A stretch of 64,000 nucleotides of DNA, taken from NCBI RefSeq assembly GCF_004786035.1, contig NZ_CP035088.1, forward strand, positions 3,942,001-4,006,000, written 5' to 3'. This DNA is from Pseudomonas viciae (lineage in GTDB: Bacteria; Pseudomonadota; Gammaproteobacteria; Pseudomonadales; Pseudomonadaceae). Shown in pieces: positions 53,808-63,763 of the stretch. Position 1 is the stretch's first letter, and each line of letters starts with the position of its first letter. A model generated the notes under the pieces. That model saw only the letters and a program-made list of their open reading frames with translations, was not told the DNA's origin and did not search any database. A program made the position numbers and the translations under genes.

Positions 53808-54590
53808 ATGGACAACAGCGTCATCCCAAACAACGAGCTGGTGTCGGCGGTGGGCCGGACCATGGCCGTACTCGAGGCCCTGGCCGAGCATCCGGAAGAA
53901 AGCGGCGTCTCGGAAATCGCCAACAAACTGGACATGTCCAAGGCCACGGTTTATCGCTTTTTGCAGTCGCTCAAGGCGCGCGGATATGTGGTGCAGGATG
54001 CCGAGGATCGCTATCGTCTCAGCGTCCGTCTATTTGAGCTGGGCGCCCAGGCCCTACCCCACCTGGACATCGTCCGGGAAGCGGAGCCGGGCATGCGGCG
54101 GATCAACGAGCTGACGGGGGAGACGGTTCACCTGGGGATTCTTGATGAGGGCAGCATCGTCTACGTGCACAAGATCGACTCCAAGTACAACCTGCGCATG
54201 TACTCGCGCATTGGCCGGCGAGCGCCGCTGTACTGCACCGGCATCGGCAAGGTGCTGATGGCCTGGCTTGAAGAAGATGAGTTGCTCGCGCACCTCAAGG
54301 AAGAAAGCTTCGAGCGCCGCACAGCCAACACACTGACCAGCATCGAAGCCTATCTGGAAGAATTGGAAACCGTCCGCCGGCAAGGCTATGCCGAAGACCA
54401 TGAAGAGTTCGAAGACAACATGCGCTGCCTGGCGGCGCCGATTCGTGACCGCTTTGGTCACGTGATCGGCGGCATGAGCGTTTCATTCCCGTGTTTTCGC
54501 TTCCGGGAAGAACTGAAGCAGGATTACGTCAAGCAGCTGATGGAAGCCACGCAGCAGATTTCAGCTCAGTTGGGCTGGCACTCGCGTTGA
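53808..54590 (+). CDS. kdgR: IclR-family regulator KdgR
   Basis: A 260-residue IclR-type repressor starting at 53808 behind GGAG. The winged helix covers residues 10-80 (ALAEHPEESGVSEIANKLDM, SKATVYRFLQSLKARGYV). The effector domain follows with GETVHLGILDEGSIVYVHKI, YNLRMYSRIGRRAPLYCTG, and the C-terminal EEFEDNMRCLAAPIRDRFG. The YNLRMYSRIGRR line is nearly that of E. coli KdgR. It should sense 2-keto-3-deoxygluconate. Its 3' end overlaps the luxI 3' end by 25 bases on the opposite strand. Confidence 0.92.
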   Translation: MDNSVIPNNELVSAVGRTMAVLEALAEHPEESGVSEIANKLDMSKATVYRFLQSLKARGYVVQDAEDRYRLSVRLFELGAQALPHLDIVREAEPGMRRINELTGETVHLGILDEGSIVYVHKIDSKYNLRMYSRIGRRAPLYCTGIGKVLMAWLEEDELLAHLKEESFERRTANTLTSIEAYLEELETVRRQGYAEDHEEFEDNMRCLAAPIRDRFGHVIGGMSVSFPCFRFREELKQDYVKQLMEATQQISAQLGWHSR

Positions 54591-55171
54591 GTCTTACCAG
54601 CCACTGCACGGTGACGATAACCCGCCACATTGATCCAGAAAGGCACCACTGGAAACTCATTGACCATCTGCGGCCCCGCAATCCTGTGGGTGCTGACACC
54701 CATGCGCCTGAGCAGGCGCTCGTTTCCCGGCGCACTGAACGCAATCAACCGACGTGCGCCAAGGGTCTGCGCGACGCCGATGACCTTGCTCATCAACCAT
54801 GTAGTGTCGTGCCAGGCCCGCATGACCTGGGCCCGTCGCGACAGTGGACGCCGGCTGGCAAACCGGGACAGCTCCCAGACGGTGCTTGAGGACGGCAACG
54901 GCGTGTCACCCATCAACTGGGGAAACACCTCCCCCAACAGAAAGGGGCGATCGGTAGGAATCAAGCGTGCACACCCGACGATTTCCTGCCTGCTGTCGCG
55001 GGCCAGGACATACACCGTGTCCGGCCGATCGAAAGCATCCACCTCGAAGCCCTCGGCGCAGGGCAATGCCCAGCCGAGGCCCTTGACGAACACATCATAC
55101 CGATAGCGCGCCAGTGCCTTGAACAGGGCCGGGGACATCTCACTGCGGGTGCTGGCAATCACTTCGAGCAT
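54566..55171 (-). CDS. LuxI-family acyl-homoserine-lactone synthase
   Basis: A 201-residue synthase making an N-acyl-homoserine lactone from S-adenosylmethionine and an acyl carrier. All eight residues invariant in LuxI proteins can be placed: R24, F28, W34, D45, D48, R69, E100 and R103 (YRYDVF, GLGW, DAFD, CARLIPT, WELSRFA). The spacing is that of TraI/PhzI. The N-terminus overlaps the hydrolase gene upstream by 13 bases, so it is the last gene of a seven-gene leftward operon. The partner LuxR is encoded 7.8 kb away at 62960. Confidence 0.92.
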   Translation of the reverse strand: MLEVIASTRSEMSPALFKALARYRYDVFVKGLGWALPCAEGFEVDAFDRPDTVYVLARDSRQEIVGCARLIPTDRPFLLGEVFPQLMGDTPLPSSSTVWELSRFASRRPLSRRAQVMRAWHDTTWLMSKVIGVAQTLGARRLIAFSAPGNERLLRRMGVSTHRIAGPQMVNEFPVVPFWINVAGYRHRAVAGKTQRECQPN

Positions 55172-56067
55172 GGTCGAGCCTCCCCGGCACCGGAGGTTGA
55201 TATGAACCCGGTGATGGCCGCAACGACCTCCGCCCCCCGCTCAAGATAGGGCACATGCCCAGAGTCCTCGATGACCTGGCCACGGGCGTCGGGCAGTTGT
55301 TGGAGCAGGTCCTCCAGGGCGGCAGGCAGGAAGACCTGGTCATGCTGCCCCCAGATCACCAGCGTCCTCGAAGCGATCTGTGGAAGCCGCACGAGAAGTA
55401 CGTCCAGGCCTTCGCGGCGGAAATCCTCAATGGCCCGCTGCACCGCAGCAAACCGCGACCTGCCGCTGGCCGCCATGGCCTGCGCCAGGCGTCCTCGCAC
55501 TTGGGGTGGCCGCCTGAACACCAGGCTCCAGAAGCGCCTCATCTCCTCGACCGTACGATAGCCGAAGACATTTCCTTGCCCTTGCAGGCCGGCTTGCAAT
55601 GCCGGCCCCAGCACCGTCGGGCCGAGACCGGCAGGCGCCAGCAAGACCAGGTGACTGACGCGCCGGGGGTATTTCGCGGCATACAACCCGGCCACGCAAC
55701 CGCCCAAAGAGCTGCCGACCAGCACGAAGGGACCCTCGCCTACCGTTTCCAACAAATTCTCCAGCGCTGCCAGCAAGGCCTGCGGTCCGAAGCCCGCAGG
55801 CGGCTCGTACAAAGATTGGCCATGTCCCGGCAAATCGACAAAGACGCAAGGGTGATGGCGTGCCAAGCCCAGGATCGCAGGCCCCCACTGGTCCTTGCTG
55901 GCCCCCAAGCCATGAAGGATGACCAATGTCGGCCCCTTCTGACGCGCAGCGCTTTGCAGATAGGCCAAGCGCCCTTGCGCACTGGTGTGCCAGCGCAGTT
56001 TCAAACCGAACCGCCAGCGCTGAACCAGGCGCAAGGTGCTGAGCAACAGGCGATCAACGCTGTTCAT
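55159..56067 (-). CDS. Alpha/beta hydrolase
   Basis: A 302-residue alpha/beta-fold hydrolase. The oxyanion region is LHGLGASKDQWG, the nucleophile elbow GSSLGG, the acid GQHDQVF, and the His in EDSGHVPYLE. A lid with RRFWSLVFRRPP lies between. It has no signal peptide. It overlaps the exporter gene by 14 bases and luxI by 13, so it belongs to the biosynthetic operon. Release or hydrolysis of a thioester or ester intermediate is plausible. Confidence 0.88.
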   Translation of the reverse strand: MNSVDRLLLSTLRLVQRWRFGLKLRWHTSAQGRLAYLQSAARQKGPTLVILHGLGASKDQWGPAILGLARHHPCVFVDLPGHGQSLYEPPAGFGPQALLAALENLLETVGEGPFVLVGSSLGGCVAGLYAAKYPRRVSHLVLLAPAGLGPTVLGPALQAGLQGQGNVFGYRTVEEMRRFWSLVFRRPPQVRGRLAQAMAASGRSRFAAVQRAIEDFRREGLDVLLVRLPQIASRTLVIWGQHDQVFLPAALEDLLQQLPDARGQVIEDSGHVPYLERGAEVVAAITGFISTSGAGEARPCSK

Positions 56068-56959
56068 CCGCCACTCCTTGCCCTTTGCTGCCGCCTTTGA
56101 GAAAGAACTTTGCGGGCAGGCGCAGTTGGCAGAGCGCCACGCCGGACAGCGTCAACGCGGCGCCGATCAGCAGGCGCTGGCTGATGCCTTCGGCGAGCAT
56201 GATCTGGCTGACGGCGATCGCGAACAACGGCACCAGGAGCAGGTACGGGCTCAGTTGCTGCATCGAATTGCGTCCGAGCAACCAGAACCACAGGCCGAAC
56301 CCCAGCAGACCGCCGCTGAGTGCCGTGTAGAGGACCGCCCACCATGCCTGGGCGCTGGCCGTGTGGACGCTTGCCCATTGCCCGCCTTCCTGGATGAAGG
56401 ACCACAACAACAGTTGCGGCGCGGCGATGACAGCCGTCCAGGCACTCAAGGCCAGCGGATCCAGCGGCCCGAGACGCTTGGTCAACACCGATCCGACCGC
56501 GAATGCCAAGGCCGCCAGCGCCACCAGCAGCATGCCGACAAAAGTCCCGCTCGCCGACGGTTTGGCCAGCAATACCAGGACCCCGGCGAACGCCAGCAGG
56601 ATGCCCACCAGCACCCGCACTTTCAGGACTTCACCCAATACCGCAAACGCCAGAACGAGGGTGAGGGGTGCCGCCAGCTGATAGATGATTGCCGAGGTAG
56701 AAGCGTCTACCCGGGCGATACCGCAGTACAGCAAACCAAAATGCAAAGTGCCGGTAATCGTCGCGATCACGACCATCGGCCCGAACTGCTCGCGCTTGAC
56801 CCGCTTGAGCAATGGCATGAGAAACAGCGCCATGATCGCGTAACGCATGGCGACCATGAGGATAGGTGGCAGCTCGGCGCCACCCATCTTCACGGCAGTG
56901 ACCTGGGCGCCCCAGAGAAACGCGACCAGCAGCGCCAGCAATGAATCTTTCAATGGCAT
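56054..56959 (-). CDS. EamA/DMT-family exporter
   Basis: A 301-residue membrane protein with ten predicted helices in two EamA repeats. The first opens LLALLVAFLWGAQVTAVKMGG, and the second begins near residue 145 (GMLLVALAALAFAVGSVLTK). Family members export amino acids and metabolites. Its place inside the biosynthetic operon makes it the likely exporter of the product. It starts six bases after the flavoprotein gene. Confidence 0.9.
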   Translation of the reverse strand: MPLKDSLLALLVAFLWGAQVTAVKMGGAELPPILMVAMRYAIMALFLMPLLKRVKREQFGPMVVIATITGTLHFGLLYCGIARVDASTSAIIYQLAAPLTLVLAFAVLGEVLKVRVLVGILLAFAGVLVLLAKPSASGTFVGMLLVALAALAFAVGSVLTKRLGPLDPLALSAWTAVIAAPQLLLWSFIQEGGQWASVHTASAQAWWAVLYTALSGGLLGFGLWFWLLGRNSMQQLSPYLLLVPLFAIAVSQIMLAEGISQRLLIGAALTLSGVALCQLRLPAKFFLKGGSKGQGVADEQR

Positions 56960-56964
56960 GACAG

Positions 56965-57576
56965 TTATCCCTTCTGAAATTGAATGGGCCGCAGGATTCT
57001 TTCCGGCTTGCCCGTGGCAACCCCTGTGGGATTAAGACGACGGTAGTGCTCACAGAGCCGGTCCAGCGTCTCGCACAAGGCCTGTTCCGCTTCAGGATCG
57101 TGGGCCAGCTGTGTCTGGAAGCACGGCGGGAATCCCGAGCCGACCAGAATCATCTTGTTGAGCAGTACGTTCAGCGCGACCTGGGAGAAAACAGCCGTGT
57201 GCCCATAGCGCCGACCGACCACCGCAATCGCCGCGAGCTTGTCGCGCAGGGGACGTTGGCGTGGACGCATGAAGCCATAGCCGACCCGCTCCAGGAACGC
57301 CTGGAAGCGGCTGTTGGTGCCGTAGGCATGCATGACGGGGAGATAGAGCACCGCATCGGCGCGGTCCAACCGCGCCACCAACTGCCCGACGTCGTCCTGC
57401 ACGGCGCAGTCCTGATCCGAACAGGCGTTATCGGCGTCGCAATAATCGATCCGGTAATCCTTGAGCCAGATGTCATCGATCTCAATCTCCTCGCCCAAGT
57501 GGCGGCGCACCAGCGCCACCACCCGTGCACTGACACCACAAGGTCGGCTAGAGCCAACAATGATGGTCAGATTCAT
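56965..57576 (-). CDS. NAD(P)H-dependent FMN reductase / flavodoxin-like protein
   Basis: A 203-residue flavodoxin-fold protein. The FMN phosphate loop is IVGSSRPCGVSARVV at residues 6-20. A Cys-rich stretch CDADNACSDQDCA near 45-58 recalls iron-sulfur flavoproteins but lacks the full tight cluster motif. YLPVMHAYGTNSRFQAFLER marks the flavin loop. It starts three bases after the di-metal oxidase gene and probably supplies it with reducing equivalents. Confidence 0.85.
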   Translation of the reverse strand: MNLTIIVGSSRPCGVSARVVALVRRHLGEEIEIDDIWLKDYRIDYCDADNACSDQDCAVQDDVGQLVARLDRADAVLYLPVMHAYGTNSRFQAFLERVGYGFMRPRQRPLRDKLAAIAVVGRRYGHTAVFSQVALNVLLNKMILVGSGFPPCFQTQLAHDPEAEQALCETLDRLCEHYRRLNPTGVATGKPERILRPIQFQKG

Positions 57577-57579
57577 GAT

Positions 57580-58263
57580 TCAGGACGCCTCTCGCAGCCC
57601 TTCTTCGCCAGCCAGATAGGCTCGCAGCGCTTCCTCCATCAACTGTCCGGTCAGCCACAACGTGACGCGTGCGACTTCCTTGATCTGGCGACGATCGTCC
57701 TCGGTCTTCACCGCACGTTGGATGGCCAGGCGCACTTCTTCGGCGTGCTTCTCATCGATGGTCGAGTGGGCGACGAAGAACGTCATCTGCTCATCCTTCA
57801 AGCCCAGGTCGGTGCGGAACCGGTCCAGGATCGGCTGGATGTGCTCGTAGACGTCCTCGGCCCAATAGCTGTAGCCCAACCTTGCGATCGGCCCCTTGCG
57901 GATAGCCACATCATTGAGGAAGGCGATCAGTGCCTGGGTTGGCGCCAGGGGTGCCGGCATGTCCTGTGGCAGCAGCCCGACCGACTCGAGGTCACGCAGT
58001 ACCATGCGCTCGTGACCCAGCTCTTCCAGGGCGTGCTTGTAGACGAAGCGCAGCAGCGTCGTTTCTTCCGGGTCGGCACTGTAGGCGCAGGCGGCCTGGT
58101 TGACCGAGTTGTAGCGGGTGTAGTGGTACACCTGCAGCATGAGCTGTTGGTAGAGGGCTGGCGGTGTAGGGTTGTCCAGGCTGAATTTCCAGTAGGCGCC
58201 CTGCTTGATCTGGGCCCAACCCGCGTCGACGATAGCGTCGAGTTCCTTGAAGAATGCTTGCAT
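57580..58263 (-). CDS. Haem-oxygenase-like di-metal oxidase (TenA/CADD-like)
   Basis: A 227-residue all-helical protein. The ATG at 58263 follows AAAGGAG; a longer frame to 58296 lies partly inside the acyltransferase gene. Candidate metal ligands are H77, E80/E81 and H84 in HALEELGHE, E136 in YWAEDVYEH, and H166, D170, H173 in HSTIDEKH. The H-x3-D-x2-H triad is the pattern of haem-oxygenase-like di-metal oxidases such as CADD, which carry out N-oxygenation, decarboxylation or C-C cleavage. It is not a thiaminase in context. Flanked by an acyltransferase and a flavoprotein. Confidence 0.85.
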   Translation of the reverse strand: MQAFFKELDAIVDAGWAQIKQGAYWKFSLDNPTPPALYQQLMLQVYHYTRYNSVNQAACAYSADPEETTLLRFVYKHALEELGHERMVLRDLESVGLLPQDMPAPLAPTQALIAFLNDVAIRKGPIARLGYSYWAEDVYEHIQPILDRFRTDLGLKDEQMTFFVAHSTIDEKHAEEVRLAIQRAVKTEDDRRQIKEVARVTLWLTGQLMEEALRAYLAGEEGLREAS

Positions 58264-58264
58264 T

Positions 58265-58810
58265 TCAATTGGCTCCTTTAACATTGTGGTAAACACTTTC
58301 GAGTTCCAGGTACACGAGGCTGTAGCGCCGCTCGACCTGTTCCCCCGTCCAGGTCACGTCTTCCTCCAGCACGCGCCCGCCCAGGCCGACATACAGCGCA
58401 GCCAGTTGGCCGCGACACAGTGCCGAGATGAATCGCAGGTGGGTGTTGGCTTTCAGCCAGATCGCCGCCTGCAGGAGAAACATGCGCAGGTGCCGCCCGC
58501 CGCGGTAACGCTCGTCCAGCACCAGCCGATTGGCATCGAAGGCATCCGTCGACTGCTGGAAATAGGCATGCACATTGACGGCCCGCTCGACGAAACTCAG
58601 GCCATGGCCCAGCGGTGTGACGCGCAGCGTCCCGACCACTTCGTCGTTGTCCAGATAGATCAGGTGGTAAGACATGGCGTCGCGCAGCTGCTCCCTTCGC
58701 TCGAAGTCATCCTCCTTCGCCGGGTTAGTCCCCAGGTAGCGACTGCGCAGTTGCCTGACGGACTCGAACAGATCACTGGCGCTGTCGATCACGCGAACAG
58801 ACAAGCTCAT
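58265..58810 (-). CDS. GNAT / FeeM-like N-acyltransferase
   Basis: A 181-residue protein of the GNAT fold starting at 58810 behind GAGG. The opening includes SVRQLRSRYLGTNPAKEDDFERR, then HLIYLDNDEVVGTLRVTPLG and the acyl-binding region EERYRGG-like VLDERYRGGRHLRMFLLQAA. The pattern RxRY...DDF recalls N-acyl amino acid synthases of the FeeM type, a relative of LuxI. It lies nine bases after the ligase gene and ends next to the oxidase start. N-acylation of the aromatic amine or another amine intermediate is likely. Confidence 0.75.
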   Translation of the reverse strand: MSLSVRVIDSASDLFESVRQLRSRYLGTNPAKEDDFERREQLRDAMSYHLIYLDNDEVVGTLRVTPLGHGLSFVERAVNVHAYFQQSTDAFDANRLVLDERYRGGRHLRMFLLQAAIWLKANTHLRFISALCRGQLAALYVGLGGRVLEEDVTWTGEQVERRYSLVYLELESVYHNVKGAN

Positions 58811-58818
58811 CGGTGACC

Positions 58819-60171
58819 TCACTGGCCTTCGCGTTGATCGACGATGCGGGCTTCTTTCCAACTGAACCAACTGCCCAGGTTCACGTGTTCGGCAAGATCG
58901 CCCACCACCATGACCGTGGCTTCGACGCCCAGCCGTTCACGCAGGCGCTCCTTGATCAGCAGCACCAGGCGTGCACGGTCGCCATCGAAGAAGCGCGACA
59001 TTTCCAGTTTGGCGATGACCGTGTCGCGATCATTGGCGCGGCTAAGGACGATCTGATAGCCCAGGCACTGTTCAACGCCTTCAAGCAGCGCCTGCTCGAT
59101 CTGCGCGGCCGAGAAGGCGCGATCGTTCAACTGCACGGCATCCTTCACTCGACCGACGACCTTGACGGTCTGGCGCATCGATTGGGGATAGCCCGGACGC
59201 GACTGGATCGAGACCAGGTCACCCGTGCGGTAGCGGATCAACGGCTTGCTACCAGGGATCAGCATGGTCACGCACAACTCGCCATCGCCGGTGCCGCCCA
59301 GGCTTTCGCCAGTTTTGGGATCAAGCACTTCGATGAGGTAGTTGAGGCGATGAGGCACCAGTTGGTCGTTGGCGTTGCAAGCCGCGATGATCATCGCTTC
59401 CTGGGAGCCATACAGGCTGTTGTAGGCTTGCGCCCCCCACAGGCTGAAGAGGTTGTTCTTCAACGCAGGGGTGCACAGCTCGCCACTCATCATGAAGGCA
59501 CGCAGGGCGAAGTCCTCGCGTGGGTTAAAGCCCTGGCGCTCGGCTTCCTTGGCCATGGCCAGCAAAAGCCCCGGTGCGGAAGCGAGCACCCCGATGCGCA
59601 GGTCCTTGAGCAGTTGCAGCGCCTTGGGCCAGCCGATCACCGGTGAGTGCGGCCAGATCTTGGCATTGCACACGTCGAGCTGAGTGCAGACGTCGCCCAG
59701 GGTGTCACCGAAGGAATGGACCTCGGTGGGGCCCATGATGCCGACCACGGTCTTCTCACCCGGAAAGTGCTTTTCGATCACCGCCTGATAGGCCATGGCC
59801 AGTTGGCGATTGCTCGCGTAGCTTTCCTTGCGATCCCGTGGGCATGGCGTAGCAGGCCCGGTGGTGCCCGTCGTCTCGTAATAGAAGATGCTGTCTTCCA
59901 GCGGGCCGGACAGAATGTCGAAGCCTGCCTCGCGCAAATCATCCTTGGTCGTGAATGGCAAGGTGACGAGGTCATCCAAGGTCAGCGAACGCTCGTCGAC
60001 CTGGGCAAGGTGCCTGGAATAGAACGGCGAAGAACGCTTCACGTGGCCGATCACTTCCCGCAACTGTTCCTGATGCCATGCCGCCAACGCGGTGTCGCTG
60101 AGGACGTCGGTCCAATAGGCATGATGAATCGGATCGTACCGTTTCTTGAATGTGTCTAAATGCTCTTTCAT
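58819..60171 (-). CDS. Phenylacetate-CoA-ligase-like adenylating enzyme
   Basis: A 450-residue ANL-superfamily enzyme of the PaaK type. The AMP-binding core motif is YYETTGTTGPATPCPRD, the region MMSGELCTPALKNN precedes A5-like YGSQEAMI, and RYRTGDLVSI is the hinge region. A small C-terminal domain ends with the lysine region WKEARIVDQ. It activates an aromatic carboxylate as acyl-AMP or CoA ester. Next to anthranilate synthase genes the natural guess is anthranilate. It is the first gene of the leftward operon, about 40 bases behind a predicted start point with a lux-box-like dyad. Confidence 0.88.
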   Translation of the reverse strand: MKEHLDTFKKRYDPIHHAYWTDVLSDTALAAWHQEQLREVIGHVKRSSPFYSRHLAQVDERSLTLDDLVTLPFTTKDDLREAGFDILSGPLEDSIFYYETTGTTGPATPCPRDRKESYASNRQLAMAYQAVIEKHFPGEKTVVGIMGPTEVHSFGDTLGDVCTQLDVCNAKIWPHSPVIGWPKALQLLKDLRIGVLASAPGLLLAMAKEAERQGFNPREDFALRAFMMSGELCTPALKNNLFSLWGAQAYNSLYGSQEAMIIAACNANDQLVPHRLNYLIEVLDPKTGESLGGTGDGELCVTMLIPGSKPLIRYRTGDLVSIQSRPGYPQSMRQTVKVVGRVKDAVQLNDRAFSAAQIEQALLEGVEQCLGYQIVLSRANDRDTVIAKLEMSRFFDGDRARLVLLIKERLRERLGVEATVMVVGDLAEHVNLGSWFSWKEARIVDQREGQ

Positions 60172-60216
60172 TTCAGCCGCTCAGGTTTGATGGGTTACTG
60201 GAACTCAACGGCCGCT

Positions 60217-60262
60217 ACGTTAGTGACAGAAGTTACAAATACCCAGCTGCGTTATCCCGCAG
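60217..60262 (-). promoter_or_regulatory. Lux-box-like dyad and promoter of the biosynthetic operon
   Basis: CTGCG (60247-60251), TTATCC, CGCAG (60258-60262) forms CTG-N10-CAG, the core of the lux-box consensus, with perfect five-base arms. On the minus strand TAACGT (60222-60217) can serve as -10, putting the start point near 60210 and the dyad centred near -44. This is the position expected for a LuxR-type activator overlapping -35. Confidence 0.6.
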
Positions 60263-60375
60263 TTGTGCGCGCACGAGTTTCTTGTTAAAAGCACGCGCGA
60301 TTACATATGCGCAGGAATAGTTGTTGTGCCTGACGACACTAAGAAATGAATGAAATATTAATATCCGCCCAACAG

Positions 60376-60404
60376 TTGACAGCCCCGGGGCACACTGGTA
60401 ATTT
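60376..60404 (+). promoter_or_regulatory. Near-consensus sigma-70 promoter for the TrpE/TrpG-like operon
   Basis: TTGACA (60376-60381), a 17-base spacer and TAATTT (60399-60404), preceded by TGG as an extended -10 element. The predicted start point lies near 60411, which gives a leader of about 400 bases before the coding region. Confidence 0.65.
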
Positions 60405-60448
60405 CGCCGCACTGCCGCTCGTTCCCGCAGTGCCTAGCCAAGACTGGG

Positions 60449-60559
60449 ATGTCTAAAATGTACTATCACCTTTCTGCTATCAGCTCTTCCCACAGCTACC
60501 CCGACAGCTGTTCCCGGGCCATTCTGGCCATCTTCAAAAGCAATATCTGGCGTCGCTAA
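60449..60559 (+). other. Possible leader peptide ORF in the TrpE-like gene leader
   Basis: A frame of 36 codons (or 33 from the ATG at 60458) lies just after the predicted start point. It ends AIFKSNIWRR, which recalls the end of TrpL, but with only one Trp codon. Its stop lies inside a hairpin TCGCTA-ATAATC-TAGCGA (60553-60570). The ribosome site is weak (GGGA, seven to ten bases upstream of the second ATG). Confidence 0.4.
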
Positions 60560-60767
60560 TAATCTAGCGAAGACCAGCGTCTGTCTGCTGCCTGCCAGCA
60601 ACGTCCTGCTCTCTCCCCAATGAAATTCTAAGGCGCTCGCGCCTTGTGCCCTGCGCATCGCTGGCTGCAATCCGTTGCAAGCCTGGTATTGCGCGCGACA
60701 TGAACAGCGTCCGCCCCGAATATTCAGGATATCCGTCAACACCTATTTAAAGTGCCTGTGCACTTTA
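60553..60767 (+). promoter_or_regulatory. Structured leader RNA, three hairpins
   Basis: Perfect stems: TCGCTA/TAGCGA (60553-60558, 60565-60570), AAGGCG/CGCCTT (60630-60635, 60640-60645) and TAAAGTGC/GCACTTTA (60748-60755, 60760-60767). None has a clear U tract. They may form alternative folds linked to leader translation. Confidence 0.45.
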
Positions 60768-60818
60768 TATTCCCGTGGCGCTCTCTTAATCGAGTGCCTG
60801 AATCGTTGCACCTTGAAA

Positions 60819-62300
60819 ATGGTATTAACCGTGAACAAACATTTAATTGGCGTCAATGTTCTTCGCCGCGAAGAACGTCGACCTACAGATGCACTTGGCA
60901 TATATGAAAATGCACTGGAGCAACTGGGTCGCGAGTCTGTCTTCATTCTTGAATCACTGTCCGGTCCAAGCCGTGATCGCCGGGCGACGATCATCGGGCT
61001 CGAGCCCCTTTTCGAAGTGTGTATCGATGAGGGCCAGGCACAACTGCGAGGCTGTCCTGCGCTGTGTGAACACTTGTCCGCCAGCCTGCGACAAGGGGGG
61101 GTACAGGTCGATCCCGAGCACAAGATCCATCTACCGGACAGCGAGGCAGCGTGGAACCTGCTCCGGGCCATCCAGGCTACGTTCCAGCCTGCACCCAATG
61201 CCCCTTCCAGCCTGGCGTTCTTCGGCTATTTCTCCTACGACTGCGTTCGCCTGATCGAGCGCCTTCCCGATGTCGCCGAACAGACCTACAGCTACCCGCT
61301 CATCGCCCTGTCGGTCTATCAGACACTGGTTTATTTCCACAGCAACGGCATTGTCGAAACCCTGATCAACAACCACCCTCTGTGGGCGCCCCGTACAGTG
61401 GAGGATTACCCCTTCCTGAGCGCGCCCCCGGCGTGCGAGGCAGTGGATCTGCCACCGTATCCAGAGACATTCGAGGAAAGCCGCACGGTCACCCCGGAGC
61501 AATTTTGCGAACGTGTCGAAGTCGCGATGGAGCACATCCGCGCGGGCGACGTCTACCAGATCCAGCTCGGCCATGAGATCCGCATTCGCTCGCAGGTTGC
61601 GCCGTTCGATGTGTACCAGAACCTGCGCCTGCGCAACCCCTCTCCTTACATGTACCTGGCCCATGTAGGCGGTATCGACCTGATCGGAGCCAGTCCTGAA
61701 CTGTTCGTCAGGATCAAGGACGATTTGATAGAGATGCGTCCTATCGCCGGCACTGTCGGCAAGAAGCCTGGCGTCGATCCGACCCAGCTGGTGCTGGAGT
61801 TGACCCGCTCGGAGAAGGAACGCGCCGAGCACCTGATGCTCATCGATCTGTGTCGCAATGATATCGGTCGCGTTTGCCAGGCCGGCTCGCTGGAAGTCGA
61901 CGAGTTCATGCTGGTGGAGGAGTACTCGCACCTCTATCACATGGTGTCGAACGTTCGCGGTCTGCTGCGCCCAGGCCTGGATGCCTACGACGTGATCAAG
62001 GCCTCGTTCCCCGCCGGAACCATGTCCGGCGCGCCCAAGGTCAGGGCGATGGAGTTGATCGAGGGAATGGAGAGCAACCGCCGCGGCATCTACGCCGGAG
62101 CCCTAGGTCTGGTAGGTTTTGATGGCAGCGTCAATACCGCCCTGTGCATTCGCTCGACCGTCTTCGACGAGGGCACCTACCACTTGCGGGCATCCGCCGG
62201 GGTGGTTGCCGACTCGGTTCCCGAGATGGAGTGGAAAGAGACGTTGTACAAAATGGGTTCTGTCTACCGGGCAGTGACCGGCAAGGAGATCGCACTGTGA
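60819..62300 (+). CDS. Anthranilate synthase component I-like (TrpE-type chorismate enzyme)
   Basis: A 493-residue chorismate-utilising enzyme (GTG at 60831 is an alternative start). The N-terminal Trp-site line is FILESLSGPS. The catalytic domain shows IGASPELFVRI, MRPIAGTVGKKPG, EKERAEHLMLIDLCRNDIGR, FPAGTMSGAPKVRAMELI, and GIYAGALGLVGFDG. The RPIAGT segment continues VGKK instead of the RPRG-type seen in housekeeping TrpE, so it is a specialised paralogue, as PhnA is. Product is probably anthranilate. Aminodeoxy(iso)chorismate is a possible alternative. The stop overlaps the next start. Confidence 0.88.
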   Translation: MVLTVNKHLIGVNVLRREERRPTDALGIYENALEQLGRESVFILESLSGPSRDRRATIIGLEPLFEVCIDEGQAQLRGCPALCEHLSASLRQGGVQVDPEHKIHLPDSEAAWNLLRAIQATFQPAPNAPSSLAFFGYFSYDCVRLIERLPDVAEQTYSYPLIALSVYQTLVYFHSNGIVETLINNHPLWAPRTVEDYPFLSAPPACEAVDLPPYPETFEESRTVTPEQFCERVEVAMEHIRAGDVYQIQLGHEIRIRSQVAPFDVYQNLRLRNPSPYMYLAHVGGIDLIGASPELFVRIKDDLIEMRPIAGTVGKKPGVDPTQLVLELTRSEKERAEHLMLIDLCRNDIGRVCQAGSLEVDEFMLVEEYSHLYHMVSNVRGLLRPGLDAYDVIKASFPAGTMSGAPKVRAMELIEGMESNRRGIYAGALGLVGFDGSVNTALCIRSTVFDEGTYHLRASAGVVADSVPEMEWKETLYKMGSVYRAVTGKEIAL

Positions 62301-62881
62301 AAGTATTCCTGATCGATGCCTACGACAGCTTCGTCTTTATCATCAGCCAGTACCTGGAACAACTGGGGCTGGAAACCCGCGTCGAGCGTCACGACGTGCC
62401 AGACCTCCTGCAACGCATCGAGGATTTTTCACCGGACTTCTGCGTGCTGGGCCCTGGGCCTGGGCATCCGGCCGACGTTGGCTACATCGAAGTCATCAAG
62501 CACTTTCAGGGGCGTTTGCCGCTGTTGGGCGTTTGCCTGGGTCATCAGGCCATCGGCCTGGCCTTCGGCGCCCAGGTTTGCCGCGCCCCGCACGTGATGC
62601 ACGGCAAGGTGAGCAAGATCGAGAATGATGGCAAGGGCGTCTACGACCATACGCAAGCACGTGCCATACAAGCCACCCGCTACCACTCGTTGATGGTCAG
62701 CGACCAGCAATTACCCGACTGTCTGGAAGTCACCTCGCGATCCACCGACGACGGCTATGTGATGGGCGTGCGGCATCGCCACCTGCCAGTGGAGGGGGTG
62801 CAGTTTCACCCTGAGAGCATCCTGACCGAAAACGGCTTGGACCTGTTCCGCAGTTTCATCAAGTGTTACGTGCACCAGTGA
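62297..62881 (+). CDS. Anthranilate synthase component II-like (TrpG-type amidotransferase)
   Basis: A 194-residue class I glutamine amidotransferase with a GTG start behind AAGGAGAT, overlapping the TrpE-like gene by four bases. The catalytic Cys lies in GVCLGHQAIG, and His and Glu in VQFHPES. The GPGPGHPADVG loop differs from the SPGPCTPNEAG of housekeeping TrpG. It delivers ammonia to the component I partner. An intrinsic terminator follows. Confidence 0.9.
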   Translation: MKVFLIDAYDSFVFIISQYLEQLGLETRVERHDVPDLLQRIEDFSPDFCVLGPGPGHPADVGYIEVIKHFQGRLPLLGVCLGHQAIGLAFGAQVCRAPHVMHGKVSKIENDGKGVYDHTQARAIQATRYHSLMVSDQQLPDCLEVTSRSTDDGYVMGVRHRHLPVEGVQFHPESILTENGLDLFRSFIKCYVHQ

Positions 62882-62890
62882 CCCACCAGG

Positions 62891-62912
62891 AGGGGCGCAC
62901 GCCCCTTCTTTT
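62891..62912 (+). terminator. Intrinsic terminator after the TrpG-like gene
   Basis: AGGGGC (62891-62896), loop GCAC, GCCCCT (62901-62906), then TCTTTT. It separates the synthase genes from luxR. Confidence 0.75.
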
Positions 62913-62959
62913 CCGTGCTCCGGCTGTTTCATTCCCGCTATAACAAGAGCGACTCGTTT

Positions 62960-63763
62960 ATGGACAAACTCAACTCTCCCGTCTGCGGCCGGACCCAGGC
63001 CGGGCGTACCGCACCGCTGACCGCCTTCATGAGTCTGGCCAAGGATGCCAACCGTTGCGATTGGGAGCGCCTGGTCAACAAAGTGCTGCGCCAACTCGGC
63101 TTTGGCAGCTACCTCATCAGTCTGGGACCGGCAGCGCCAAGGGACACCGACCCTCTCGCCGGCCTTATCACCACCTTTCCCAAACGCTGGCTGGAACACT
63201 ATCGCGGTGACGGGCTGATCGAGATCGACCCGATACTCAGGCACTGTCGGCGCGAACTGCTGCCTTTTTTCTGGGACAACGAGCGCAGGCGCGCCCGTGG
63301 ACGCTCCCGGCACTTCTGGCAGCAACGCGAGCAACACGGCCTGCGCAGCGGCCTGAGCATCCCGCTGCGCTACGAGATGCTCAGGGGAACACTGAGTGTG
63401 GCGTTCGATGACACCCAGATCACCGAGCGAGAAGGGCTTTCCAACCCCGCCGTCTATCAATTATTCATGCTCATCCCCTACCTGCTCGCCGGGATGCGCC
63501 ATCAGTTGCAGAGTCCAGCAACCCAGCCCCGCCAGAACCTCACGCCCAAAGAATTGGACTGCCTGTATTGGGCCAGCGCCGGCAAGACCACCTGGGAGAT
63601 CAGCCACATCCTGACCTGTTCCGAACGCACCATCGACTTCCACCTGCTCAATGCCCGACGCAAACTCGGTTCGGTGAGTCGCCAGCAGGCCGTCAGTGCT
63701 GCGGTGGCCTGCGGGCTCGTCACGCCGACGGTTGAACCAGCGGTCTACAGACGCCAGAAATGA
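62960..63763 (+). CDS. LuxR-family quorum-sensing regulator
   Basis: A 267-residue regulator. The autoinducer-binding domain holds the invariant residues W77, Y81, D90, P91, W105 and G131 (RWLEHYRGDGLIEIDP, FFWD, GLRSGLSIP). The C-terminal helix-turn-helix spans about 195-255 (LTPKELDCLYWASAGKTTWE, ERTIDFHLLNARRKLGSV). The ATG at 62960 gives about 30 residues more at the N-terminus than typical LuxR proteins; the methionine at residue 24 could be another start. It is the likely receptor for the LuxI product of 54566. Confidence 0.93.
   Translation: MDKLNSPVCGRTQAGRTAPLTAFMSLAKDANRCDWERLVNKVLRQLGFGSYLISLGPAAPRDTDPLAGLITTFPKRWLEHYRGDGLIEIDPILRHCRRELLPFFWDNERRRARGRSRHFWQQREQHGLRSGLSIPLRYEMLRGTLSVAFDDTQITEREGLSNPAVYQLFMLIPYLLAGMRHQLQSPATQPRQNLTPKELDCLYWASAGKTTWEISHILTCSERTIDFHLLNARRKLGSVSRQQAVSAAVACGLVTPTVEPAVYRRQK

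What the first reader, a model, noticed from the sequence alone, without database searches (positions are those of the whole stretch)
54566..63763. Quorum-sensing-linked gene cluster for an anthranilate-type metabolite
Ten genes share one divergent regulatory region: adenylating ligase, FeeM-like acyltransferase, di-metal oxidase, flavoprotein, EamA exporter, hydrolase and LuxI to the left; TrpE-like, TrpG-like and LuxR to the right. Seen directly: domain motifs, gene overlaps, order. Known: anthranilate synthase paralogues feed special metabolites (PQS, phenazine-related routes), and LuxI/LuxR often control such clusters. Inference: chorismate becomes anthranilate, is activated by the ligase, is acylated and/or N-oxidised, and is exported. 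No PKS, NRPS or pqs/phz genes are present, and I do not recognise the set as a described pathway.
Basis: partly seen in the sequence, partly recalled or inferred. Interest (0 to 1): 0.88.

Follow-up and report, generated by a model that had tools for sequence, protein, structure and literature searches.

The report
Quorum-regulated benzoxazolinate-like metabolite gene cluster
A Pseudomonas gene cluster that looks set up to turn chorismate into an unusual aromatic compound related to a part of the antitumour agent C-1027, probably under cell-to-cell signal control; a sister copy sits on plasmids of plant pathogens, where mutants in it were reported to infect kiwifruit less well and the product is still unknown.

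Summary
The ten genes are real and rightly named. Nine (all but luxI) occur together in all 22 loci examined (loci found through the acyltransferase or the oxidase), in two arrangements, one of them on a conjugative plasmid of the kiwifruit pathogen P. syringae pv. actinidiae (Psa). The set is already in print there (2013, 2014, 2018) as an orphan aromatic pathway beside the LuxR solo PsaR3. Two corrections. (1) LuxI is optional (intact in 4 of 22); LuxR, its AHL-pocket residues and a lux-box-like site before the ligase are kept. (2) The chemistry is probably not plain anthranilate: TrpE (44%), TrpG (52%), flavoprotein (35%) and ligase (43%) all match the sgcD / TrpG-like / sgcG / ligase block of the C-1027 cluster, whose benzoxazolinate comes through ADIC and 3-O-enolpyruvoylanthranilate. 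NRPS and PKS are absent; a LuxI/FeeM-fold acyltransferase and a haem-oxygenase-fold oxidase stand in their place. A 33-codon leader ORF before trpE is under selection in the main group. Published Psa insertions in the trpG-like gene and the ligase lower virulence; ten paper searches showed no paper linking these facts. Every enzymatic step and the product remain inferred.

The parts
54566..55171 (-). LuxI-type AHL synthase; optional last gene of the left operon, overlaps the hydrolase gene by 13 bp
   Evidence: PF00765 84 bits, cut-off 24; intact in 4 of 22 loci
55159..56067 (-). alpha/beta hydrolase (core, most divergent biosynthetic gene: 43-44% in type B loci)
   Evidence: PF00561
56054..56959 (-). 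EamA-family exporter (core)
   Evidence: PF00892
56965..57576 (-). SgcG-like flavoprotein, candidate ADIC dehydrogenase (core)
   Evidence: PF03358; 35% over 148 aa to SgcG; three of SgcG's four clustered Cys kept; nearest other protein in own genome E 0.17
57580..58269 (-). Haem-oxygenase-like di-metal oxidase, HDO (core)
58265..58813 (-). LuxI/FeeM-fold acyltransferase (core)
58819..60171 (-). PaaK-family adenylating ligase, first gene of the left operon (core)
   Evidence: PF00501/PF14535; 43% over 445 aa to the ligase next to sgcG and sgcD
60247..60265 (-). lux-box-like site CAACTG-N10-CAG before the ligase
   Evidence: exact in 10 of 14 type A loci, one base off in the other 4; CAACTG-N10-CAG in 8 of 8 type B loci; only match in the window, 0.71 expected by chance
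60376..60404 (+). TTGACA-N17-TAATTT promoter-like site for trpEG
   Evidence: read from sequence; conserved in the type A alignment
60458..60559 (+). 33-codon leader ORF, MYYHLSAISSSHSYPDSCSRAILAIFKSNIWRR
   Evidence: 33 codons in 13 of 14 type A loci and 4 of 8 type B loci; window versus Psa plasmid pS 0.42, pN 0.11
60831..62300 (+). SgcD-like chorismate-aminating enzyme, TrpE family (core)
   Evidence: PF00425/PF04715; 44% over 483 aa to SgcD
62297..62881 (+). TrpG-like glutamine amidotransferase (core)
   Evidence: PF00117; 52% over 191 aa to the TrpG-like protein next to sgcD
62963..63763 (+). LuxR-type regulator, relative of PsaR3 (core)
   Evidence: PF03472/PF00196; six pocket residues invariant in 9 of 9 aligned; 65% over 229 aa to the Psa plasmid LuxR

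Best explanation
A LuxR-controlled, NRPS-free pathway for a secreted aromatic compound of the benzoxazolinate type. SgcD-like TrpE with TrpG aminates chorismate to 2-amino-2-deoxyisochorismate (ADIC); the SgcG-like flavoprotein oxidises ADIC to 3-O-enolpyruvoylanthranilate (OPA); the PaaK-family ligase adenylates OPA, giving benzoxazolinate or an activated aryl acyl group; the LuxI/FeeM-fold acyltransferase joins that group, or a fatty acyl group, to an amine or hydroxyl; the di-metal HDO adds an O2-dependent step; EamA exports the product. LuxR, with an AHL made by LuxI where present and coming from elsewhere where not, binds the lux-box-like site and switches on the ligase operon; trpEG has its own promoter and a leader ORF. 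Shown here: gene content, synteny, homology of four genes to the sgc block, LuxR pocket, conserved site, selection on the leader ORF in type A. Inferred: every reaction, their order, the LuxR-site contact and the product.
For: Nine-gene unit in 22 of 22 loci. Four genes match an adjacent four-gene block of the C-1027 cluster; a ten-sequence TrpE tree splits cluster TrpE + SgcD + a Streptomyces homologue from housekeeping TrpE, PabB and a Staphylococcus homologue with 98% support; TrpE is under the NCBIfam TrpE cut-off (375 of 518 bits). PMC10098953 (parts 1-2 of 5) gives the chemistry of SgcD, SgcG and a PaaK-family ligase. LuxI/FeeM fold. Lux-box-like site in both arrangements. Psa data: induction in planta (PMC6238374 passages) and reduced virulence of insertions in the TrpG-like and ligase genes (PMC9823363 passages; identity of the loci).
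Confidence: 0.55

Rival explanations
1. One reading: TrpE/TrpG make anthranilate itself, the ligase makes anthraniloyl-AMP or -CoA, the acyltransferase and HDO acylate or N-oxidise it, and the flavoprotein only supplies reduced flavin.
For: TrpE family, with the PIAGT and GTMSGAPK stretches; PaaK-like ligases accept aryl acids; anthranilate proposed in PMC3723570 (passages).
Against: Closer over full length to the ADIC synthase SgcD than to the own housekeeping TrpE (44% versus 36%); a flavoprotein with SgcG-type sequence is a core gene; ligase homologue lies between sgcG and sgcD.
Confidence: 0.25
2. A 3-hydroxyanthranilate route, benzoxazole-like: the ligase joins two aryl acids as NatL2-type enzymes do, with HDO hydroxylating anthranilate.
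For: The ligase matches AjiA1 and a PaaK-like ligase of solved structure, which I recall as benzoxazole-pathway enzymes.
Against: Those matches (E about 1e-19) are weaker than to PaaK of Burkholderia-type entries (1e-27) and than the 43% to the C-1027 ligase; the zinc C-x-C pair is missing; no amidohydrolase of the benzoxazole type among the ten genes.
Confidence: 0.08
3. No joint pathway: neighbouring genes that merely sit together.
For: luxI is sporadic and the hydrolase is divergent; in three genomes trpEG stands without the rest.
Against: Nine genes together in 22 of 22 loci in two arrangements and on plasmids; overlapping or abutting frames.
Confidence: 0.02

Closest known systems
Plasmid-borne orphan aromatic pathway of P. 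syringae pv. actinidiae with PsaR3 (PMC3723570, PMC3909224, PMC6238374; passages or sections seen)
   Same: The same nine core genes in the same divergent order, HDO 89%, ligase 87%, TrpE 83%, LuxR 65%, and the same leader ORF
   Different: On a 74-kb conjugative plasmid instead of the chromosome, no luxI; its product is unknown too
Benzoxazolinate part of the C-1027 cluster (sgcD, sgcG, PaaK-family ligase, TrpG-like)
   Same: All four genes have counterparts at 35-52% identity, adjacent in the sgc block
   Different: The window has no enediyne PKS, NRPS or sugar genes among its ten; adds LuxI/FeeM-fold acyltransferase, HDO, EamA, LuxR; flavoprotein lacks one of four Cys
Benzobactin pathways (pbz, xvb, xsb; PMC10098953 parts 1-2 of 5)
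   Same: ADIC synthase or TrpE-like enzyme, SgcG-type dehydrogenase, PaaK-family ligase
   Different: Benzobactins use NRPS modules and a serine hydroxymethyltransferase; none here. The zinc tetrad reported for XsbC is not kept
FeeM N-acyl amino acid synthase and LuxI AHL synthases
   Different: 8-17% sequence identity in these alignments, no Pfam profile match; substrates unknown
Haem-oxygenase-like di-metal oxidases (CADD, HrmI, UndA)
   Same: Fold and metal-ligand-like residues (the family's ligand pattern is recalled)
   Different: The nearest solved relative, 3dde (36%), is described as of unknown function; the reaction cannot be inferred

Membership tests
Benzoxazolinate cassette (SgcD / SgcG / PaaK-family acyl-AMP ligase) | SgcD-type chorismate-aminating enzyme | tested here: inconclusive
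   44% to SgcD and 98% split in a ten-sequence tree; activity not tested
Benzoxazolinate cassette (SgcD / SgcG / PaaK-family acyl-AMP ligase) | SgcG homologue | tested here: met
   35% over 148 aa, E 4e-29 in a 14- or 15-sequence test set; nearest other own-genome protein E 0.17
Benzoxazolinate cassette (SgcD / SgcG / PaaK-family acyl-AMP ligase) | Four clustered Cys of SgcG (taken here as its Fe-S site) | tested here: not met
   Three of four aligned Cys in 6 of 6 cluster flavoproteins aligned
Benzoxazolinate cassette (SgcD / SgcG / PaaK-family acyl-AMP ligase) | PaaK-family ligase homologous to the one beside sgcG and sgcD | tested here: met
   43% over 445 aa
Benzoxazolinate cassette (SgcD / SgcG / PaaK-family acyl-AMP ligase) | Zinc tetrad reported for XsbC and NatL2 | tested here: not met
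   No C-x-C pair in the window ligase; the C-1027 ligase also lacks it, so it may not define the family
Benzoxazolinate cassette (SgcD / SgcG / PaaK-family acyl-AMP ligase) | Product benzoxazolinate | not testable with these tools
   needs chemistry
LuxI/LuxR quorum-sensing pair | luxI next to the cluster with luxR | tested here: met
   in the window; intact in only 4 of 22 loci
LuxI/LuxR quorum-sensing pair | AHL-pocket residues W, Y, D, P, W, G in LuxR | tested here: met
   invariant in 9 of 9 aligned sequences; residue list from PMC3909224, mapped by eye
LuxI/LuxR quorum-sensing pair | lux box in a target promoter | tested here: inconclusive
   conserved lux-box-like dyad before the ligase in 22 of 22 loci, 18 exact; binding not tested
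FeeM N-acyl amino acid synthase | FeeM fold | tested here: inconclusive
FeeM N-acyl amino acid synthase | Pfam FeeM profile match | tested here: not met
   no Pfam family at 1e-3
Anthranilate synthase component I of tryptophan synthesis | NCBIfam TrpE equivalog cut-off | tested here: not met
   375.4 bits against 517.7
Haem-oxygenase-like di-metal oxidase | Fold and six metal-ligand-like residues | tested here: met
   (ligand pattern recalled)

The most novel reading that the evidence does not exclude
The core LuxI-fold acyltransferase is itself the signal synthase: it couples an OPA- or benzoxazolinate-type aryl acyl group to homoserine lactone or an amino acid, and the conserved LuxR senses that product, so the cluster is a self-contained aryl-type autoinducer system made from chorismate. 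luxI would be a later add-on of one clade, and LuxR and its site would persist in genomes without any luxI because the signal is made by the core.
Probability: 0.13. Interest if true: 0.9.

Novelty: new variant of a known kind. Interest (0 to 1): 0.62.

Why it matters
It gives a testable chemical class to an orphan pathway that is induced during kiwifruit infection, whose published mutants are weaker, and whose HDO gene is on 23 Pseudomonas plasmid records. If true it also adds an NRPS- and PKS-free branch to the small group of benzoxazolinate pathways, with a LuxI-fold enzyme as joining step and an HDO as tailoring step, and it names a likely target operon for an AHL-type LuxR solo.

Tried and rejected
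Chance neighbourhood: rejected by synteny. LuxI as a core gene: rejected. Leader ORF as a peptide precursor: disfavoured, since it was not found in L030, L031 and L045 and is decayed in L044, four type B loci with the full gene set, and it stays with trpEG in three genomes without the acyltransferase. It differs from the housekeeping trp leader of the own genome, read as MKVIKALARWRWRA, and no Rfam family matched the region up to E 10. HDO reaction from distant neighbourhoods: class, phylum and order searches (9 of 369, 20 of 398 and 2 of 341 genomes, own genome included in each) and plasmids show HDO relatives near LuxI/FeeM-like or T_hemolysin-type genes in several without naming a reaction. 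The HDO fold search does not single out one HDO function. Viral contigs: none. Guess that G827's family holds the Acinetobacter relatives: 0 of 119, uninformative. PDB sequence search with the acyltransferase: nothing below E 0.079. Paper searches. One search listed 40 of 617 papers, mostly on a human gene named SGCG, so a relevant paper can have been missed; the main text of PMC10098953 holds neither 'syringae' nor 'actinidiae'. MIBiG could not be searched.
Full report

2. The unit is nine genes. A search with the acyltransferase found it in 16 of 398 genus genomes, the window's own included. I fetched the other 15; all nine genes other than luxI are there in 15 of 15. A scan of GTDB genomes with the HDO gave 14 named loci; nine are the same contigs, and the five new ones (L033, L035, L036, L044, L045) have all nine genes, as has the one Psa plasmid that I fetched of 23 Pseudomonas plasmid records found (L078). 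With the window that is 22 of 22, all chosen through the acyltransferase or the HDO. Type A (14 loci) is divergent as in the window; type B (8 loci) has ligase to hydrolase, then trpE, trpG and luxR, on one strand. Order inside both blocks is the same.

3. LuxI is an add-on. It is intact in the window, L018, L020 and L033; in L019 (= L034) the C-terminal third no longer matches; it was not found in the other 17 loci. On a tree of nine concatenated proteins the five carriers fall in one group that also holds L021, which lacks it. Seven of 16 cluster genomes have no PF00765 match anywhere; several are drafts. LuxR's six pocket residues are invariant in 9 of 9 aligned sequences from both types. 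The window's genome has a second luxI with a luxR-like gene nearby.

4. Regulation. On the ligase strand CAACTG-N10-CAG occurs exactly in 10 of 14 type A loci, the other four (L019, L035, L036, L078) being one base off in the distal half, and exactly in 8 of 8 type B loci. In L028 the centre lies about 42 bp before the start implied by TTAATG, the classic lux-box place (recalled). The motif alone is not rare: one match in the window against 0.71 expected. Its keeping in both arrangements is the evidence. trpE has a TTGACA-N17-TAATTT promoter-like site (60376-60404) and a 33-codon ORF at 60458-60559. Between the window and the Psa plasmid the ORF has pS 0.42 and pN 0.11; between the window and type B (L028) 0.61 and 0.36, and over all 18 sequences variable columns are spread 20, 21, 28 over codon positions, against 8, 9, 19 in 13 type A sequences. 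So selection on the peptide is plain within type A and weaker across types, where the ends (MYY[HR]L, FKSNIWR) are kept and the middle is not. The ORF is 33 codons long in 13 of 14 type A loci (30 in L025) and in 4 of 8 type B loci; it was not found in L030, L031 and L045 and is decayed in L044. Its 3' end was found in 8 of 199 genus genomes; in three of these (G003, G039, G125), which lack the acyltransferase, it stands before what by its translation is the same trpE-trpG pair, and one keeps what looks like a hydrolase remnant (judged by eye on 9-9.5 kb). A leader peptide for trpEG is the simplest reading.

5. Chemistry. A plasmid search with the ligase brought up the C-1027 enediyne plasmid of Streptomyces globisporus, where the homologue stands in the order sgcG, ligase, sgcD, TrpG-like. 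All four window counterparts match: flavoprotein/SgcG 35% over 148 aa, ligase 43% over 445, TrpE/SgcD 44% over 483, TrpG 52% over 191 (small test set). A ten-sequence tree separates cluster TrpE, SgcD and one Streptomyces homologue from housekeeping TrpE, PabB and a Staphylococcus homologue with 98% support; the sample is small, and the Staphylococcus gene comes from what looks like a benzobactin-type cluster, so ADIC synthases need not form one group. The nearest other own-genome protein to the flavoprotein has E 0.17. According to PMC10098953 (parts 1-2 of 5 read) SgcD makes ADIC, SgcG oxidises it to OPA, and the PaaK-family ligase XsbC closes the ring to benzoxazolinate; an ADIC synthase, the dehydrogenase and XsbC sufficed in E. 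coli. Against a full equation: three of four SgcG Cys in 6 of 6 cluster flavoproteins, and no zinc C-x-C pair in the ligase, which the C-1027 ligase lacks as well. So I say that the cluster works like the cassette and leave membership open.

6. What joins and tailors. With no NRPS or PKS among the ten genes, the LuxI-fold enzyme is the only evident acyltransferase. HDO keeps E82, E83, H86, H168, D172 and H175 in all, and E138 in at least 90%, of 31 sequences, and has the fold of CADD, HrmI, UndA, PqqC and haem oxygenases, closest to 3dde of unknown function. Among relatives at 56% identity or less, HDO and ligase lists share seven longest-contig lengths, among them 3,828,888 (Acinetobacter baumannii) and 166,734 (Aquabacterium). 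This suggests that the pair occurs together outside Pseudomonas; I could not fetch those contigs. A Xylella fastidiosa ligase relative (52% over 81%) is listed, in line with remarks in PMC3723570 and PMC6238374.

7. Print. McCann 2013 (PMC3723570, passages) described both operons on the Psa plasmid and suggested anthranilate as ligase substrate. Patel 2014 (PMC3909224: outline, passages, section 4 part 1, sections 8 and 10) studied PsaR3: all nine key residues, a 23-38% response to hydroxy-AHLs in E. coli, at least 100-fold fewer bacteria in planta in the mutant, not complemented. The review PMC10134790 (passages) lists psaR3 beside the TrpG-like gene, from which I identify it with the cluster's LuxR. 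PMC6238374 (passages) reports strong induction in planta and no known product. PMC9823363 (passages) lists IYO_RS29530 (score 3) and IYO_RS29540 (score 2) among 91 reduced-virulence mutants of 3000 (selected below 4; six seedlings scored), both growing on minimal medium; these are the TrpG-like gene and the ligase. By length alone 0.12 hits in the cluster would be expected (Poisson P of two or more about 0.007; genome size assumed, cluster chosen afterwards). In ten paper searches (listed under Tried and rejected) I saw no paper that ties these hits to the cluster or the cluster to benzoxazolinate.

8. Verdict. A new variant of a known kind: a conserved, LuxR-linked, NRPS-free pathway of probable ADIC/OPA type, known as an orphan in Psa. 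Confidence 0.55 in the route as stated, less in the exact product.

Noticed in passing
window 60458-60559 (+): Unannotated 33-codon ORF in the trpE leader, kept in most type A loci and on the Psa plasmid, retained with trpEG where the rest of the cluster is gone; resembles no Rfam family and is not the housekeeping trp leader.
   Followed up: partly
L082, L089, L090: Distant HDO relatives sit in an operon with a T_hemolysin-family protein and an AMP-binding ligase (and, in L082 and L089, an SDR, a TPR protein and a two-component system), another GNAT-like plus ligase plus HDO grouping.
   Followed up: partly
L079, L080, L096: HDO relatives next to, or one gene from, LuxI/FeeM-like GNAT genes on an Agarilytica and a Deefgea plasmid and in genome G1193; in the last two with a DUF3419-like gene (the G1193 gene judged by eye).
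   Followed up: partly
L116 (Staphylococcus epidermidis plasmid): NRPS, ACP, PaaK-like ligase, TrpE, TrpG, serine hydroxymethyltransferase and DAHP synthase together, resembling a benzobactin-type cluster on a 28-kb plasmid.
   Followed up: no
L099 (own genome C1:3659500-3665500): A second luxI in the window's genome with a luxR-like gene about 1.2 kb away.
   Followed up: no
L113, L114: Ligase relatives (37-38%) in P. aeruginosa and Pantoea plasmid records lie in a conserved set with a BacA-like gene, a transaminase, an ornithine cyclodeaminase-like gene and a LysE exporter.
   Followed up: no
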